Source of the DNA: Bacteroidaceae bacterium
Lineage (GTDB): Bacteria > Bacteroidota > Bacteroidia > Bacteroidales > Bacteroidaceae
Length of the DNA stretch: 46,447 nucleotides
Direction of reading: 5' to 3'
NCBI GenBank assembly: GCA_017940185.1
Contig: JAGAZE010000042.1
Span: forward strand, 1-46,447
The position numbers and the translations under genes were made by a program. This document shows positions 27,053 through 46,447 of this stretch, in pieces (the stretch's first letter is position 1; each line of letters starts with the position of its first letter). Below the pieces are notes generated by a model. That model saw only the letters and a program-made list of their open reading frames with translations, searched no databases and was not told the origin of the DNA.

Positions 27053-27149
27053 CTCTGCGTAATTCATCTTTGGCCGTTTAGGCCTTTACTCATTGTGCAT
27101 CATGCAGATAGTGTGCATGACACGCCATAATGCCTTGGAGCACTTCGTG

Positions 27150-27809
27150 CTACTTCACCACGCGGAAGTCGATGCGTAGCATCTTCTTTTCATTGGGAGC
27201 GAGGCGTATCTCAAATTCCGTGTAGTATTTGCCGGGGTTCAGAGGTTTGTTTGCTACACCTCGTTTGTAATAATGAAATTTATTGCCAGCCATGAATCCT
27301 TCATACTGCTTGCCCGACCATGTGGCAGTCCAGCGAAGGGGCTTTTCGGGCCAAACGCCGATACAGATCCGAAGTTCCGCAGTCTGATCACCTGTCAGAA
27401 CAGGATCATAAGGATAACCCACAAATTTTCCGTCTTCCGTGTGAATATTGAAAATACCATCTTTTATACCTGACTTTACATAGGGAGTGGGGAATAACGT
27501 GGGGCGTCCGTCGCGTTCGCCCTGGATGTAAACAACATCGTCTGTAAGATTGGCAATGGAAATGTCAAAGATGATGTCGTCGCCATATTTGAATTCCGTG
27601 GTACGCTTGCCGTTCTGATTCCGCAGGCAATACTGTACCACCAATCCGTTTTCGGGCATTACTTCCGGGTTGTACACCACAGGCGGCATCTCTCTGTCGG
27701 GGTCGTCGGGAAGCACCTCTGTTTTTGTAGCGTCATCATCATCGTTGCCACAACCGGCAATCATAAACGCTCCAAGGAACAGACCGAATAAAACAAAATT
27801 CTTTTTCAT
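27150..27809 (-). CDS. Surface lipoprotein, copy A of a tandem pair
   Basis: A 219-residue lipoprotein. The signal peptide ends in a lipobox (FMIAGC) with Cys at about residue 20, followed by GNDDDDATK; an acidic run after Cys is the known Bacteroidota signal for export to the outer surface. The body is predicted beta-rich: EFKYGDDIIFDISIANLTDDVVYIQGERDGRPTLFP in the middle and KYYTEFEIRLAPNEKKMLRIDF at the end, resembling an immunoglobulin-like (BsuPI-type) fold. Function unknown. Residues 1-60 and the last 37 are almost identical to copy B at 28202-28861, but the centre differs strongly. The same-length start was chosen for both copies. Confidence 0.75.
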   Translation of the reverse strand: MKKNFVLFGLFLGAFMIAGCGNDDDDATKTEVLPDDPDREMPPVVYNPEVMPENGLVVQYCLRNQNGKRTTEFKYGDDIIFDISIANLTDDVVYIQGERDGRPTLFPTPYVKSGIKDGIFNIHTEDGKFVGYPYDPVLTGDQTAELRICIGVWPEKPLRWTATWSGKQYEGFMAGNKFHYYKRGVANKPLNPGKYYTEFEIRLAPNEKKMLRIDFRVVK

Positions 27810-27866
27810 AATGGTGTGTTTTTTATGGGTTCGACTTTATGTTTTCAGGATAGTGTTTTCAGCGTA

Positions 27867-28193
27867 TTATGGTATCAGCACGGTGCAGGTGAACACTTCG
27901 CTGCCTGCCAAGCCGCGGAAGACGTAGTAGTAGCCCGACAGGAACGTGCTCAGCGGTATGAGCGCATCTTCTCCTTCCACAAGGGCGTTGTAGGCTATCA
28001 CGCTGGAGCCTATTCGGCATGCTGTGAGCTGCCAGGTGCCAACCTCGGGCAGCGGCACCTGCGGGTCGGTCACCAACGACTCGTAGCCGAAGTGTATGCG
28101 TAGCATGCCACCTTCTATGTAGGGTGTCAGGCCTCCTTCCACCTGCGGTATCTTTGTGAGATTGTCGCGCAACTGAATGTTGAAATCAGGCAT
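27867..28193 (-). CDS. DUF3244-like small protein, 5'-truncated by tandem duplication
   Basis: An open frame of 108 codons (MPDFNIQLRDNLTKIPQ ... YYYVFRGLAGSEVFTCTVLIP). The beta-strand pattern and the ending (ALIPLSTFLSGYYYVF) resemble the short Ig-like DUF3244 proteins of Bacteroidota. It has no signal peptide: its first codon abuts the end of lipoprotein copy B, where the sequence shared by both copies (TAGCACGAAG) stops abruptly, which marks the duplication breakpoint at about 28192. The complete gene would have begun like the remnant at 29102 (MNLFKILFMPLLSG). Its product, if made, would stay in the cytoplasm. Probably non-functional; DUF3244 assignment is tentative. Confidence 0.5.
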   Translation of the reverse strand: MPDFNIQLRDNLTKIPQVEGGLTPYIEGGMLRIHFGYESLVTDPQVPLPEVGTWQLTACRIGSSVIAYNALVEGEDALIPLSTFLSGYYYVFRGLAGSEVFTCTVLIP

Positions 28194-28201
28194 GCTTCGT
28201 G

Positions 28202-28861
28202 CTACTCCACCACGCGGAAGTCGATGCGTAGCATCTTCTTTTCATTGGGAGCGAGGCGTATCTCAAATTCCGTGTAGTATTTGCCGGGGTTCAGAGGTTT
28301 GTTTGCTACACCTCGTCGATCATAGAAGAAATAACCAGTTCCCTCAAAGGAATCATATTGCTTGCCCAACCACGAAGCCGTCCATTTTCTCGGTATCTCT
28401 GGCACTAACATTTGTACACGCAGACATTCATCGGTTTGTTTTCCAGATAATGTGGGGTTGTAGGGATAGCCCACAAAGGTGCCGTTGACATCATGAATGT
28501 TGAAGATACCATGTTCTTCACCCTTTTGTACCAATGGAGTGGGAAATAACGTGGGACGCCCGTCGCGCTCACCTTGTATATAGACAGTGCTAGCGGTAAG
28601 ATTAAAAACAGATAAATCGAATATAATATCGTCACCATATTTGAATTCCGTGGTACGCTTGCCGTCCTGATTCCACAGACGAAATTGTACCGCCAATCCA
28701 TTTTCAGGCATTACTTCCGGGTTGTACACCACAGGCGGCATCTCTCTGTCGGGGTCGTCGGGAAGCACCTCTGTTTTTGTAGCGTCATCATCATCGTTGC
28801 CACAACCGGCAATCATAAACGCTCCCACGAGCAGACCGAATAAAACAAAAATCTTTTTCAT
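28202..28861 (-). CDS. Surface lipoprotein, copy B of a tandem pair
   Basis: A 219-residue paralogue of the gene at 27150-27809 with the same lipobox (MIAGC) and GNDDDD export signal. The start at 28861 (MKKIFVLFGLLVG) is preferred over an in-frame ATG three codons upstream because it matches copy A. Central residues differ (FDLSVFNLTASTVYIQG; TDECLRVQMLVPEIPRKWTASWLGKQYDSFEGTGYFFYD), while the C-terminal RRGVANKPLNPGKYYTEFEIR ... is the same. The bases encoding the last 37 residues show a single difference over about 119 bp between copies. Function unknown; probably exposed on the cell surface. Confidence 0.75.
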   Translation of the reverse strand: MKKIFVLFGLLVGAFMIAGCGNDDDDATKTEVLPDDPDREMPPVVYNPEVMPENGLAVQFRLWNQDGKRTTEFKYGDDIIFDLSVFNLTASTVYIQGERDGRPTLFPTPLVQKGEEHGIFNIHDVNGTFVGYPYNPTLSGKQTDECLRVQMLVPEIPRKWTASWLGKQYDSFEGTGYFFYDRRGVANKPLNPGKYYTEFEIRLAPNEKKMLRIDFRVVE

Positions 28862-28917
28862 AATGCTCAATTGTTAAGGGTTTGACTTTATGTTTTCAAG
28901 ATAGTGCTGTCAGCGTG

Positions 28918-29102
28918 TCATGGTATCAGCACGGTGCAGGTGAACACTTCGCCGCCTGCCAAGCCGCGGAAGACATAGTAGTAGCCCGACAGGAACGTGC
29001 TCAGCGGTATGAGCGCATCTTCTCCTGAGCCGAACAGTACACGCCCGGTCGCAGAAGCAGGCCGGACAGCAAGGGCATGAATAAGATTTTGAATAGGTTC
29101 AT
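28918..29102 (-). pseudogene. DUF3244-like gene remnant with internal out-of-frame deletion
   Basis: From ATG at 29102 the frame reads a signal peptide (MNLFKILFMPLLSGLLL ... VYCSAQ) and stops at 29001. The familiar C-terminal half (GEDALIPLSTFLSGYYYVFRGLAG) follows in another frame to 28918. Comparison with the copy at 27867-28193 shows that about 75 codons are missing, with the junction near 29027 (GGCTCA next to GGAGAAGATG). It retains the promoter and operator of the unit, so its leader still drives the downstream genes. Confidence 0.7.
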
Positions 29103-29151
29103 AATATAGAAATTTTATGTGGTGTGTCATGAAATTACATGTTGTGCGCTG

Positions 29152-29184
29152 TAAAGGTAAAACAAATTTTTGCGTCCATGCAAA
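29152..29184 (-). promoter_or_regulatory. Promoter of the DUF3244-like / lipoprotein unit
   Basis: On the minus strand TTTG (29181-29184), 21 bp, then TACCTTTA (29152-29159). The last base of the -7 box deviates from the TAnnTTTG consensus, as it does in the matching promoter at 46306-46337. The box ends 49 bp before the ATG. Confidence 0.65.
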
Positions 29185-29216
29185 AAAAAGCATTTATTTT
29201 GATTTTATTCTTGTTT

Positions 29217-29236
29217 TTCTTGACATAAATCAAGAA
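29217..29236. promoter_or_regulatory. Fnr/Crp-like palindromic operator
   Basis: TTCTTGACATAAATCAAGAA is a perfect 7-bp inverted repeat around a 6-bp centre. Its core, read on the minus strand as TTGATTTATGTCAA, fits the TTGAT-N4-(A/G)TCAA pattern of Fnr-type regulators. The centre is 71 bp upstream of the centre of the -7 box. The same palindrome, at the same spacing, occurs at 46253-46272. Confidence 0.65.
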
Positions 29237-29672
29237 TTTGCGGCATTTTAAGAAACGAAAGGGCAGAAAGTGCTTTTGTAAATTTACACGAACAGTGTTG
29301 AAACGTTTGACGGAATGTCAGCATTTTTTCGGCGTTTTTCGGTTGCCTGTTGCATAGCGAATGAATCTCTACAGCTTTGCGGTTGGGCGACACTGCAACA
29401 AGCTGACAGCTAAAAACAATTATTGACTGGCAAGCAAACAAATTGACGGGTCTTTGCTGAGCACGGGTGGCGGCAAGTTGTGCCACAGGGTAGCCTGCCA
29501 GTTTTTGGCATCATCATCCAAATTTGCCTGCACGCTTACACCAACGTGTCTAACGACCTGGTGTTAAGGTGGATAGCGGGTGTAGGCAGAATCTGTTGCT
29601 TACACTTGCCTGCACTTGCCTGCACCATCGCCAGACAGAGAAGCGAGGAGAGAAAGAAGAGGAGGACAGTGA

Positions 29673-42727: not shown

Positions 42728-44581
42728 ATGAAACGCGACTTCGAACTGGAAAAACGCAAATACATCATCGGCGGGGCTGCCATAGTCATTGTGGCAGTCT
42801 ACATCCTGCGTCTGTTCTTTCTCCAGATAGCCAGCAACGACTACAAGAAAAATGCCGACTCCAATGCCTTCTTGCGCAAGGTGGCCTTTCCCTCGCGCGG
42901 TGTCATCACCGACCGCAACGGCAAACTGCTGGTCTACAACCGCCCGTCGTACGACATCATGGTGGTGATGAACGAGCAGAAAGGACACCTCGATACATTG
43001 GAACTGTGCCGCACGCTCGACATCACGCCAGAACAGTTTGAACGACGCATGGCCGACATCAAAGACCATAGCAAAAACCCCGGCTACTCAAAGTACACAC
43101 AGCAGCTGTTCATGAACCAGCTGTCGGAGGAGGAGTTCAGCGTATTTCAGGAAAAGCTGTTCCGCTTTCCCGGCTTCTACATCCAGCGTCGCGCCATCCG
43201 CCAGTATGAATATCCCTATGGCGCGCACGTGCTCGGCGATGTGGCAGAAGTGTCGCCCGAAGACATTGCCGCCGACAGCTACTATCAACCTGGCGACTAC
43301 ATAGGCAAGCAGGGCATAGAGCGCTACTACGAGCAAGCACTGCGCGGCACGAAGGGTATGCAGATATTGCTGCGCGATGCGCGAGGCCGCATACAAGGCC
43401 ACTACAAGAACGGCGCACTCGACACCAAGCCCGTACCTGGGCGCAATCTCACGCTGAGCCTCGACATCAAACTGCAGGCCTTGGGAGAGCGGCTGCTGGA
43501 AGGCAAGATAGGCAGCATCGTGGCCATAGAACCCGCCACGGGCGAAGTGCTGTGCATGGTGTCGTCGCCTACCTACGACCCACGCATAATGGTGGGACGC
43601 AACAGAGGAAAAAACCATGTGGCACTGGCGCAAAACCCCTATAAACCACTGCTCAACCGCGCCATCATGGGACAGTATCCGCCAGGCTCCACCTTCAAGA
43701 CATCGCAGGCGCTGACATTTCTGAGCGAGGGCATCATCACGCCCGAGACGTGCTATCCGTGCGCCGGCGGCTTCCTGCACAAAGGCATGCGCGTGGGCTG
43801 CCACGGGCACCCCTCGCCCATAGCGCTGGTGCCGGCCATCGGCACATCGTGCAACGGATACTTCTGCTGGGGACTGTACTACATGCTCAACAACCGCGAC
43901 AAATACCCCACACAGCAGGCGGCCATGAACACCTGGCGCGACTACATGGTGAGCATGGGCTTCGGCTATAAACTCGGCATCGACCTGCCCGGAGAGAAAC
44001 GCGGACTGATACCCAATGCCGAATACTACGACAATGCCTATAAGAAGGACTGGTCGCCACTGTCTGTCATCAGCATCAGCATCGGCCAGGGCGAGGTGAA
44101 CCTTACTCCGCTGCAGATAGCCAACCTGGGTGCTACGATAGCCAACCGCGGCTGGTATGTGGCTCCGCATGTGGTGAAAAAGATACAGGGCGAGCCGCTC
44201 GACAGCACTTTCACCATACGCCATTACACCAAGGCGTCGCACTCTGCCTACGAAGTAGTGGTGCTGGGCATGCGCCGCGCGGTGCTGGGCGGCACGTGCA
44301 AGGCGCTGGGGCGCAGCAACATTCCCATTTGTGGCAAGACGGGAACAGCGCAAAACCGTGGCCACGACCACAGCATCTTCATGGGCTTTGCCCCCATGGA
44401 TAATCCGAAGATAGCCATCGCCGTCTATGTGGAGAACGGAGGCTTCGGTGCCACCTATGCCGTGCCCATGGCAGGGCTGATGATTGAACAATACCTCAAC
44501 GGCAAGCTGTCGGCCTCGTCGGCAGGGGCAGCCTCGTCGTTCCAACACCGCAGAATAGCTTATGGTGCGTCCAACCGATAA
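42728..44581 (+). CDS. mrdA: Penicillin-binding protein 2 (elongation transpeptidase)
   Basis: A 617-residue class B PBP that crosslinks peptidoglycan during elongation, paired with RodA. It has one N-terminal membrane helix (about 13-32) and the non-catalytic pedestal domain (FPSRGVITDRNGKLLVYNRPSYDIMVV). The transpeptidase domain has the three active-site motifs: S321-T-F-K324 (PPGSTFKT), S374-C-N376 and K537-T-G539 (CGKTGTAQN). Between the first two lies a Cys/His-rich stretch (C342, C345, C358, H359, H361) in the place where E. coli PBP2 binds zinc. The 3' end overlaps rodA by 20 bp, which suggests coupled translation. Confidence 0.96.
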   Translation: MKRDFELEKRKYIIGGAAIVIVAVYILRLFFLQIASNDYKKNADSNAFLRKVAFPSRGVITDRNGKLLVYNRPSYDIMVVMNEQKGHLDTLELCRTLDITPEQFERRMADIKDHSKNPGYSKYTQQLFMNQLSEEEFSVFQEKLFRFPGFYIQRRAIRQYEYPYGAHVLGDVAEVSPEDIAADSYYQPGDYIGKQGIERYYEQALRGTKGMQILLRDARGRIQGHYKNGALDTKPVPGRNLTLSLDIKLQALGERLLEGKIGSIVAIEPATGEVLCMVSSPTYDPRIMVGRNRGKNHVALAQNPYKPLLNRAIMGQYPPGSTFKTSQALTFLSEGIITPETCYPCAGGFLHKGMRVGCHGHPSPIALVPAIGTSCNGYFCWGLYYMLNNRDKYPTQQAAMNTWRDYMVSMGFGYKLGIDLPGEKRGLIPNAEYYDNAYKKDWSPLSVISISIGQGEVNLTPLQIANLGATIANRGWYVAPHVVKKIQGEPLDSTFTIRHYTKASHSAYEVVVLGMRRAVLGGTCKALGRSNIPICGKTGTAQNRGHDHSIFMGFAPMDNPKIAIAVYVENGGFGATYAVPMAGLMIEQYLNGKLSASSAGAASSFQHRRIAYGASNR

Positions 44582-46031
44582 CCAACCAGGAGTGCTGCAG
44601 TCGCTCGACTACTGGACGATAGGCATCTACCTGTGCCTGTTGCTTCTGGGCTGGCTCAGCGTGTGCGGTGCCAGCTACACCATCGGCGACACCAACATCT
44701 TCAGCCTCGACACACGCTCGGGCATGCAGATAGTGTGGATAGGCACGTCGATAGTGCTGGCGCTGGTCATCCTGCTACTCGACGACAGCCTCTACGACAC
44801 GTTTGCCTATGTCATCTATGGCGGATTGCTGCTGTTGCTGTTTTTCACCATCTTCAATCCCCACGAGATCAAGGGTTCGCGCTCGTGGCTGGTGATGGGT
44901 CCGGTGCGCCTGCAGCCTGCCGAGTTTGCCAAGTTTGCCACCGCATTGGCACTGGCACGCACGATGAACATCTACGGCTTCGACCTGCGGCAAGGCAAGC
45001 ACTTTCTGCAGGCATCGGCCATCATCTTGCTGCCCATACTCTTCATCGTGGCGCAGAAGGAGACAGGGTCGGCGTTGGTCTACATATCGTTTCTGCTGAT
45101 GTTCTATCGCGAGGGCATGACAGGCTGTGTGCTCTTCACGGGCATCGCATTGGTGGTCTACTTTGTGGTGGGCATTCGCTTTGCCGATGTGGTGATAGGC
45201 AGCAGCGACACACGTCTGGGCACATTTCTGGTGCTGATGCTCGTGCAGATATTCACCGCGCTGCTCATCCGCAGCTACTGCCACAACAGGCGGCTGTGCT
45301 GGCGTCTGATAGCTGTGAGCGTGGGCGTGCCGTTGGCGGCACTGCTGGTGTCGCTCACCATTGTCACCTTCAACGTCATGTGGGTGCAGCTCTTCATCAG
45401 CGTGGGCACCATTGTCTATATCTTCTATCTGGGTCTGACCTCTCGCTGGCGCAACTACCTGCTCATCACTGCCTTTGCGGCAGGGTCGCTGTTGTTTTTC
45501 TTCTCGGCGTCGCACGTGCTGAACAACGTGATGGGTGCGCATCAGCGTGAGCGCATCAATGTGCTGCTCGGCTTGAAGGACGATCCCACGGGCGCGGGCT
45601 ACAATGTGCATCAGAGCCAGATAGCGATTGGCTCCGGCGGTTTTACGGGTAAAGGGTTTCTGAATGGCACGCAGACAAAGCTGAAGTTTGTTCCCGAGCA
45701 AGACACCGACTTCATCTTCTGCACGGTTGGCGAGGAGGAAGGCTTTGTGGGGGCCTCGCTGGTGCTACTGCTTTTCCTTGCACTGATTCTGCGCCTTATC
45801 AAGATGGCAGAGCGTCAGCCGCTACGCTTTGGGCGTGTGTATGGCTATTGCGTGGTGGGCATCTTTCTGTTCCATGTGTTTGTCAATGTGGGTATGGTGC
45901 TTGGACTGACACCTGTGATAGGCATTCCGTTGCCCTTCTTTTCTTATGGCGGCAGCTCGCTGTGGGGGTTCACAATCCTGCTTTTCATCTTCCTTCGCAT
46001 TGATGCCGGCCGCAATCTGGTGCGGACATAG
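44562..46031 (+). CDS. rodA: Peptidoglycan glycosyltransferase RodA (SEDS family)
   Basis: A 489-residue membrane glycosyltransferase that polymerises lipid II in the elongasome. About ten membrane segments. SEDS motifs: SRSWLVMGPVRLQPAEFAKFA, QKETGSALVYISFLLMFYREG, FVPEQDTDFIFCTVGEEEGFVGA (with the conserved Glu-Gln-Asp-Thr-Asp region) and GIPLPFFSYGGSSLWGF near the C-terminus. The protein is about 100 residues longer than E. coli RodA because of an extra hydrophobic region in the middle (about 190-290), as in other Bacteroidota. The start at 44562 lies inside mrdA. Last gene of the operon. Confidence 0.96.
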   Translation: MVRPTDNQPGVLQSLDYWTIGIYLCLLLLGWLSVCGASYTIGDTNIFSLDTRSGMQIVWIGTSIVLALVILLLDDSLYDTFAYVIYGGLLLLLFFTIFNPHEIKGSRSWLVMGPVRLQPAEFAKFATALALARTMNIYGFDLRQGKHFLQASAIILLPILFIVAQKETGSALVYISFLLMFYREGMTGCVLFTGIALVVYFVVGIRFADVVIGSSDTRLGTFLVLMLVQIFTALLIRSYCHNRRLCWRLIAVSVGVPLAALLVSLTIVTFNVMWVQLFISVGTIVYIFYLGLTSRWRNYLLITAFAAGSLLFFFSASHVLNNVMGAHQRERINVLLGLKDDPTGAGYNVHQSQIAIGSGGFTGKGFLNGTQTKLKFVPEQDTDFIFCTVGEEEGFVGASLVLLLFLALILRLIKMAERQPLRFGRVYGYCVVGIFLFHVFVNVGMVLGLTPVIGIPLPFFSYGGSSLWGFTILLFIFLRIDAGRNLVRT

Positions 46032-46252
46032 GGGGAGGATTGTTTCTGCAAGGTTTCAGGTGCTGTTGCTGGCATGTTTCTGTTGTGGATTCTGCGACCA
46101 AAAAGAGCGATATGAGCGACAGTGAGCAGGGAAGAGTCAACCTCAACGCTGCTCTAGCTTGAGCGGCGAAGAATGAAATTCAATGTTGAAGCCATACACC
46201 GTGTGCGGCAAAAGCCACATTCTGTCATTTTGTGCTTTTAGAATACCGCAAA

Positions 46253-46272
46253 TTCTTGATTTATGTCAAGAA
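46253..46272. promoter_or_regulatory. Fnr/Crp-like palindromic operator, second copy
   Basis: TTCTTGATTTATGTCAAGAA is the reverse complement of the palindrome at 29217-29236, with no differences over 20 bp. The centre-to-centre distance to the -7 box is 71 bp, as at the other site. Surrounding bases (CCGCAAA before, AAAACAAGAAT after) are also conserved. Confidence 0.7.
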
Positions 46273-46305
46273 AACAAGAATATAATCAAATTAATTGCAC
46301 TTTTT

Positions 46306-46337
46306 CTTGCATTAACCGGATTTTGTTAATATCTTTA
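46306..46337 (+). promoter_or_regulatory. Promoter of the right-edge gene
   Basis: CTTG (46306-46309), 20 bp, then TATCTTTA (46330-46337). The box ends 49 bp before the ATG at 46387, the same distance as at the 29102 locus, and its last base deviates from consensus in the same way. Confidence 0.65.
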
Positions 46338-46386
46338 CAACGCAAAAAGTATGTTTTTATGTAAATCATTAAGAAACCTATATGTT

Positions 46387-46447
46387 ATGAAACCGTTCAA
46401 AATCTTACTCAAGTCCTTGCTATTCTGCCAGCTTCTGTTGCCAGGCA
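46387..46447 (+). CDS. Start of a secreted protein, probably DUF3244-like (3' end outside window)
   Basis: Only 20 codons are visible: MKPFKILLKSLLFCQLLLPG, a signal peptide. It resembles the signal peptide of the remnant at 29102 (MNLFKILFMPLLSGLLL; shared FKIL and leucine core) and has the same upstream module. It is therefore likely to encode a protein of the same small DUF3244-like family, but this rests on leader similarity alone. Confidence 0.55.
   Translation, partial: MKPFKILLKSLLFCQLLLPG

What the first reader, a model, noticed from the sequence alone, without database searches (positions are those of the whole stretch)
46253..46447. A palindrome-promoter-leader module with fixed geometry shared by two loci 17 kb apart
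The 20-bp inverted repeat at 46253-46272 is identical (reverse complement) to that at 29217-29236. In both, the palindrome centre is 71 bp from the centre of a TAnCTTTA -7 box, and the box ends 49 bp before the ATG of a gene whose signal peptide contains FKIL. Flanking bases from about 50 bp upstream of the palindrome to the ATG are also similar. The core fits the TTGAT-N4-GTCAA pattern of Fnr/Dnr-type Crp-family sites. Conserved spacing together with an off-consensus -7 box suggests an activated regulon of small secreted DUF3244-like proteins and linked surface lipoproteins, perhaps responding to oxygen, redox or nitrosative signals. The palindrome and spacings are seen; regulator identity and signal are inferred.
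Basis: partly seen in the sequence, partly recalled or inferred. Interest (0 to 1): 0.75.

Follow-up and report, generated by a model that had tools for sequence, protein, structure and literature searches.

The report
Prevotella-wide activator site before promoters
A short DNA palindrome sits at one fixed distance upstream of many unrelated promoters in Prevotella and its relatives, before ribosomal RNA genes, small regulatory RNAs and small secreted proteins, and it looks like the docking site of an activator protein that has yet to be studied.

Summary
In detail: the two 20-bp palindromes (46253-46272, 29217-29236) are exact reverse complements, both 71 bp from a -7 box that ends 49 bp before an ATG. 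Within this genome they are paralogous promoter-leader modules (232 bp at 74.6%), with two more copies that keep the core and one decayed copy. The geometry is much wider, though. In 60 same-genus (Prevotella) genomes, palindrome plus -7 box gives 328 matches against 2 for the reversed pattern. Of 150 matches listed, 94 lie at 71-72 bp and 15 at 81-82 bp; the spacers are little conserved. Targets include FopS sRNAs, a second structured sRNA, rRNA operons, gdh and small secreted proteins. A Crp-type protein with an FNR-like PETLSR helix co-occurs with the sites: 62 of 79 genomes with it have a site, 4 of 42 without. Best reading: a Crp/Fnr-superfamily activator bound at about -80. The proposed signal (oxygen, NO) and the DUF3244-lipoprotein regulon are not supported. 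No binding or expression data exist.

The parts
46253..46272 (+). Operator palindrome, copy A: TTCTTGA-N6-TCAAGAA, core TTGATTTATGTCAA
46307..46309 (+). TTG of a -33-like element, 20 bp before the -7 box (weak, by eye)
   Evidence: weakly conserved tTg at the same place in the genus profile
46330..46337 (+). -7 box TATCTTTA, centre 71 bp from the palindrome centre
46387..46447 (+). Start of a secreted-protein gene (MKPFKILLKSLLFCQLLLPG...), cut by the contig end
   Evidence: contig C40 ends at the same base
46209..46437 (+). Extent of the duplicated promoter-leader module, copy A
29217..29236 (-). Operator palindrome, copy B (reverse complement of copy A)
29181..29183 (-). TTG of a -33-like element of copy B, 21 bp before the -7 box (weak, by eye)
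29152..29159 (-). -7 box TACCTTTA of copy B, centre 71 bp from the palindrome centre
29001..29102 (-). 33-codon ORF MNLFKILF...YCSAQEKMRSYR: signal-peptide remnant running out of frame into sequence shared with a downstream repeat
28202..28861 (-). 219-aa lipoprotein-like ORF, possible transcript partner of promoter B; similar ORF at 27150-27809
   Evidence: no Pfam match
29052..29278 (-). Extent of the duplicated promoter-leader module, copy B

Best explanation
The palindrome is the binding site of a Crp/Fnr-superfamily transcription activator that works from about 80 bp upstream of the start point (class I-like; about one turn further out at rRNA operons and gdh) on sigma-ABfr-type promoters of Prevotella and several related genera. 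The likely protein is the roughly 200-aa Crp-type regulator with a PETLSR recognition helix; in this species it is a diverged orthologue at G000:C14 with PATLSR. Its targets include sRNAs (FopS and a second structured sRNA), rRNA operons, gdh and small secreted proteins. In the window the operator came along with a duplicated promoter-plus-leader of a secreted-protein gene. Shown: the sites, the geometry, the target classes and the co-occurrence. Inferred: binding, activation, the identity of the regulator. Its signal is unknown.
For: 328 matches of palindrome plus -7 box in 60 same-genus genomes against 2 for the reversed pattern; 60 of 60 genomes match (matches, not distinct sites). Distances of the 150 matches listed: 71 bp 60, 72 bp 34, 73-74 bp 17, 81 bp 11, 82 bp 4, every other distance 0-6. 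Of 54 palindromes chosen by palindrome sequence alone, 46 have a box at 70-73 or 80-82 bp (22 other, 15 FopS, 5 second sRNA, 4 contig-end); shifts of 5 bp either way find 0. Outside the two sRNA classes 66 of 117 box pairs lie at 71-72 and 20 at 80-82 (loci partly selected by distance). Palindrome and -7 box are strong in the profile, the spacer carries little apart from a weak -33 TTG; mean pairwise spacer identity 0.38 against 0.28 shuffled. FopS is confirmed by Rfam in 15 of 40 loci scanned, and the palindrome centre is 79-81 bp before its 5' end in the one copy measured per locus. The PETLSR orthologue (E<1e-35) is in 79 of 121 family genomes; sites occur in 62 of 79 with it and 4 of 42 without, Fisher p 8e-14; by genus 11 of 14 against 2 of 8, p 0.026. 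In 60 same-genus genomes it is found in 58: 55 at 64-100% identity, two diverged at 37-39%, one weak at 31%. G010 (99% complete) has three cNMP-domain proteins and, by eye, only this one has an ExxSR helix. ExxSR as the FNR-type reader of TTGAT is recalled.
Against: No binding, footprint or expression data. The window's own genome has a diverged orthologue (39% identity) with Ala for the Glu of ExxSR, although it has two perfect palindromes. Three genera have the orthologue without any site (g130, g133, g146), and four genomes have sites without it, in g136 and g142. Two same-genus genomes with sites lack it; they are 80% and 61% complete. Species are not independent, the E cut-off was set after seeing the list, and the genus-level test is weak. 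Of 54 palindromes 8 have no box at the preferred distances. Part of the geometry signal comes from paralogous sRNA promoters. Pfam found no HTH model in the candidate.
Confidence: 0.67

Rival explanations
1. The shared geometry in the window is only the trace of a duplicated promoter-leader segment; the palindrome has no function of its own.
For: The two window copies align over 232 bp, and three more related copies lie on C15 and C40.
Against: The same palindrome-to-box distance recurs before different transcripts with little-conserved spacers in the genus.
Confidence: 0.08
2. The operator is real but is read by another Crp-type protein, for instance the second one of this genome, which I guess to be HcpR-like, or a Cur-like one, or by a protein outside the Crp family.
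For: Each of the 10 genomes examined has 2-7 cNMP-domain proteins; the window's own orthologue has an altered helix; four genomes have sites without the PETLSR orthologue.
Against: With the second protein of this genome (L120) as query, only 6 other loci of the 30 fetched gave a phmmer match at E<=10, most of them weak (30 of 43 proteins were fetched). Cur's published motif TATGTTnTAnAACATA is different (PMC6989115, PMC3878776; passages). In G010 only the PETLSR protein has an ExxSR helix, by eye.
Confidence: 0.2
3. The regulator is a repressor or a dual regulator rather than an activator.
For: Crp-family proteins can repress from upstream sites (recalled).
Against: The site lies at about -80 and -90, on one face of the helix and clear of the -33 and -7 elements, and stands before rRNA operons and sRNA genes.
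Confidence: 0.15

Closest known systems
FNR/FixK/DNR-type regulons of the Crp/Fnr superfamily
   Same: TTGAT-N4-RTCAA palindrome; ExxSR helix in 32 of 33 helices found; upstream position on one face of the helix
   Different: Fewer cysteines than the four of FNR; closest solved sequence is 3dn7, a 'cyclic nucleotide binding regulatory protein'; acts on sigma-ABfr-type promoters; targets seen are rRNA, gdh, sRNAs and secreted proteins. What classical FNR regulons hold is recalled
Cur (BT4338) of Bacteroides thetaiotaomicron
   Same: Crp-family global regulator in Bacteroidales that also acts on an sRNA, MasB (PMC10994844, passages)
   Different: Published motif wwwTATGTTnTAnAACATAwww (passages), not TTGAT
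FopS sRNA family (RF04319)
   Same: 15 loci have Rfam-confirmed FopS behind an operator promoter
   Different: For B. theta FopS a canonical sigma-ABfr promoter is described; the passages and section 8 of PMC11697453 that I saw name no upstream activator
HcpR
   Same: Crp-family regulator of Bacteroidales (PMC13370916, a preprint, passages)
   Different: Tied there to hcp, nrfA and nitrosative stress; whether L120 of this genome is HcpR is my guess, the NCBIfam scan named no such family

Membership tests
FNR (Fe-S oxygen sensor) | Four conserved cysteines that ligate a [4Fe-4S] cluster (recalled) | tested here: not met
   In the 7 PETLSR orthologues of A1 two cysteines are shared by all 7 and a third by 6; none is invariant once the window's own orthologue is included
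FNR-type DNA recognition, relatives | ExxSR recognition helix and TTGAT half-sites | tested here: met
   PETLSR in 32 of the 33 helices that a text pattern found in 44 regulator loci; the pattern fixed LS[RK], the Glu was free; 11 loci did not fit the pattern and were not counted. Sites:
FNR-type DNA recognition, the window's own orthologue | ExxSR recognition helix | tested here: not met
   L355/L110 reads PATLSR
Crp/Fnr superfamily | cNMP-binding-type sensor domain with C-terminal winged helix | tested here: inconclusive
   PF00027 matches the PETLSR protein (1.3e-13) and the own orthologue (5.6e-11) but no HTH model did; profile match over positions 16-194 of 198 to 3dn7, E 1.1e-19
Cur | Operator TATGTTnTAnAACATA | tested here: not met
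   Window and genus sites are TTGAT-type; published Cur motif
DNR/HcpR (heme, NO) | Heme-dependent response to NO or nitrite | not testable with these tools
   No ligand assay
Bacteroidetes sigma-ABfr promoter | TAnnTTTG -7 box with TTG about 20 bp upstream (recalled) | tested here: met
   Genus profile TAnCTTTGCA with weak TTG 20 bp upstream (the TAnnTTTG was required by the search pattern); window boxes have A for the final G
DUF3244 secreted proteins | Match to the DUF3244 profile | tested here: not met
   No Pfam match at E<=0.001 for window ORFs 28918-29193, 28202-28870, 27867-28193, nor at 0.01 for 27867-28193 and the 219-aa lipoprotein

The most novel reading that the evidence does not exclude
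Prevotella and relatives have a second Crp-type master regulator besides Cur, which couples rRNA synthesis and glutamate dehydrogenase to a battery of sRNAs (FopS and an undescribed structured sRNA) by one rigid promoter architecture, as a growth-state counterpart of the starvation regulator Cur.
Probability: 0.25. Interest if true: 0.82.

Novelty: new member of a known kind. Interest (0 to 1): 0.62.

Why it matters
Prevotella are abundant gut and rumen bacteria, and I found no description of this operator in the paper searches. An operator defined by sequence and spacing, a candidate regulator and a target list make a testable regulon, and it would supply a transcriptional input for FopS sRNAs, for which the passages I saw describe only a canonical promoter.

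Tried and rejected
Rejected: pure duplication; a DUF3244 regulon; an Fe-S FNR. Breadth: at order level 15 of 148 genomes match, 12 of them among the 145 outside the family, with 18 matches against 5 for the reversed pattern, so the signal outside the family is weak at best. Autoregulation: a TTGATnnAnnTCAA palindrome lies in 1 of 41 regulator loci (L209, near the locus end); no further look. Paper searches for a prior description; nothing in the listings looked like one. The Segatella copri RNA-landscape study that PMC11697453 cites was not in the listings and was not read; it may hold start points or an upstream motif. A link of the window leader to Rhs/YD-repeat proteins is only suggested by eye (a G005 fusion, YD-like fragments on C15) and has no Pfam support. 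The second sRNA has weak, sub-threshold matches to Bacteroides sRNA BTnc231 at four of 15 loci (28-31 bits, gathering 80.4, E 0.009-0.053), so it may be a distant relative of a known sRNA.

Selection caveats: the 150 rows are those listed of 328 matches; the 60 loci were chosen for distances 71, 72, 81, 82 (60 of 109 such rows); the 221 promoters mix several selections; FopS and second-sRNA labels there come from short text patterns, not Rfam. Twelve genomes without a match are not named and were counted as lacking the orthologue. In one search shifts by -10, +10, +20 and +30 give 35, 13, 10 and 8: the first two overlap the tested distances, the last two I take for the second TAGATTTAA at 99-101 bp in FopS (seen); the other shifts from -40 to +60 give 0-5.

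Full report
Check of the observation. Window 46253-46272 is TTCTTGATTTATGTCAAGAA; 29217-29236 is its exact reverse complement. Both palindrome centres lie 71 bp from the centre of a TAyCTTTA box, and both boxes end 49 bp before an ATG whose product begins with a leader containing FKIL. The two regions align over 232 bp at 74.6%. So the geometry within the window could be plain inheritance from a duplication, and that had to be tested outside it.

The same genome. The window is the whole contig G000:C37. Two further copies on contig C15 (90224, 92257) keep the core and differ from the full palindrome pattern at one outer base; a related promoter-leader with a decayed palindrome stands at the end of C40. 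Against copy A, the C15 copies are 93% and 92% identical over 166 and 129 query bases, the C40 copy 91% over 127, copy B 81% over 110. The four with a readable downstream region (A, B, C15 twice) lead into different ORFs, A being cut after 20 codons. C37 and C40 end at the same base inside the leader, and a search of the assembly with the last 28 bases (up to 3 mismatches) found only these two ends, so the gene is probably a repeat that broke the assembly. Copy B leads into an out-of-frame remnant of 33 codons. A further palindrome, on C38, lies 72 bp from a -7 box and 81 bp before an Rfam-confirmed FopS sRNA.

Other genomes. Of 60 same-genus genomes, 33 have the 17-bp core with at most one mismatch, the reversed control found none. 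Two contigs of these genomes have the same lengths as records named Prevotella (145,960 and 30,343 bases), so I take the genus as Prevotella. Of the 55 listed sites 54 were read; 46 have a TAnnTTT[AG] box at 70-73 or 80-82 bp on one side, and the test with distances shifted by 5 bp either way finds 0. With a looser palindrome plus a box anywhere in a 31-bp range, 60 of 60 genomes match, 328 matches in all against 2 for the reversed pattern. Of the 150 rows listed, 60 lie at 71 bp, 34 at 72, 11 at 81 and 4 at 82; the two peaks are one turn of DNA apart. A profile of 100 promoters at 71 bp and 76 at 72 bp shows the palindrome (TTGATTTAtgTCAAgAAa), a weak TTG at the -33 place and TAnCTTTGCA, with little between; mean pairwise spacer identity is 0.38 against 0.28 for shuffles. 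At order level 15 of 148 genomes matched, with 18 matches against 5 for the reversed pattern.

Targets. Rfam confirms FopS in 15 of the 40 loci scanned; in the copy measured at each, the palindrome centre is 79-81 bp before the FopS 5' end (a second FopS in L031 was not measured). A second RNA, about 190 nt with hairpins and an intrinsic terminator, follows 47 of 221 promoters by text pattern. In 16 aligned sequences 17 of 52 predicted pairs have changes on both sides that keep the pair. No Rfam family matched at gathering in 8 loci; four of 15 loci had sub-threshold matches to BTnc231. The 80-82 class holds rRNA operons (16S confirmed once, at L054; L027, L052, L074, L099 and L173 share its leader by eye, others are cut by contig ends) and glutamate dehydrogenase (L081, L361-L363), besides other genes. 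Also seen are a DUF2582 protein, LysO and a family of about 125-aa secreted proteins, two members of which, as cut copies, had no Pfam match. In the 75 promoters of the degenerate-pattern set: 8 FopS, 16 second sRNA, 51 other, of which 21 have an ORF starting within 160 nt.

Regulator. This genome has two cNMP-domain proteins: L120 (which I guess to be HcpR-like from its helix) and L110. L110 is the diverged orthologue of a protein found in 58 of 60 same-genus genomes (55 at 64-100% identity), whose helix reads PETLSR in 32 of 33 helices found. In 121 family genomes sites occur in 62 of 79 with the orthologue and in 4 of 42 without; the genus-level table is 11 of 14 against 2 of 8, p 0.026. 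In G010 it is, by eye, the only one of three cNMP-domain proteins with an ExxSR helix. Its orthologues share two or three cysteines, not four, and the closest solved sequence is 3dn7. That ExxSR reads TTGAT is recalled knowledge of FNR.

Against. The window's own orthologue has lost the Glu (PATLSR), while that of G005 keeps PETLSR. Three genera have the protein without sites, and two have sites without the protein. Nothing here shows binding or activation, and the signal is unknown.

Verdict. The regulon differs from the guess and the signal is open. I read it as a new regulon of a known kind, a Crp/Fnr-type activator, with an unusual target set; no prior description appeared in the paper searches, but one relevant study, on Segatella copri, was not available.

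Noticed in passing
L057:2739-2934, L241:2125-2320 and 14 more (alignment A2): Candidate sRNA of about 190 nt with covarying hairpins and a terminator, driven by the same operator promoters; no Rfam match at gathering, weak sub-threshold matches to BTnc231 at some loci.
   Followed up: partly
window 46447 and L354 (G000:C40) end: Two contigs end at the same base inside the same leader sequence; a multicopy gene probably broke the assembly.
   Followed up: partly
G204, G245, G311 and some g137 matches: Some operator promoters of genus g2 and g137 also carry ATGTTATAAAACAT or similar near the -33 place, like the published Cur motif; seen by eye only.
   Followed up: no
L133, L138, L153, L172, L186, L229, L247: Recurrent family of about 125-aa secreted proteins behind 71-72 bp operator promoters; two members tested had no Pfam match.
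   Followed up: partly
L013 (G000:C15:84000-94661) and L353 (G005:C30): Arrays of small orphan genes with YD-like fragments beside the operator modules, perhaps debris of Rhs-type loci; no Pfam support for the proteins tested.
   Followed up: partly
G010:C2:158516-158664, G023:C2, G031:C147, G054:C31: One palindrome shared by two divergent promoters, with box distances that often fall at 73-74 bp on one side.
   Followed up: no
window 27143-27975 and 28195-29026: Duplicated lipoprotein-containing segment, 81.6% identical.
   Followed up: no
window 42728-44581 and 44562-46031: Penicillin-binding protein and FtsW/RodA genes; the latter ends 221 bp upstream of palindrome A.
   Followed up: no
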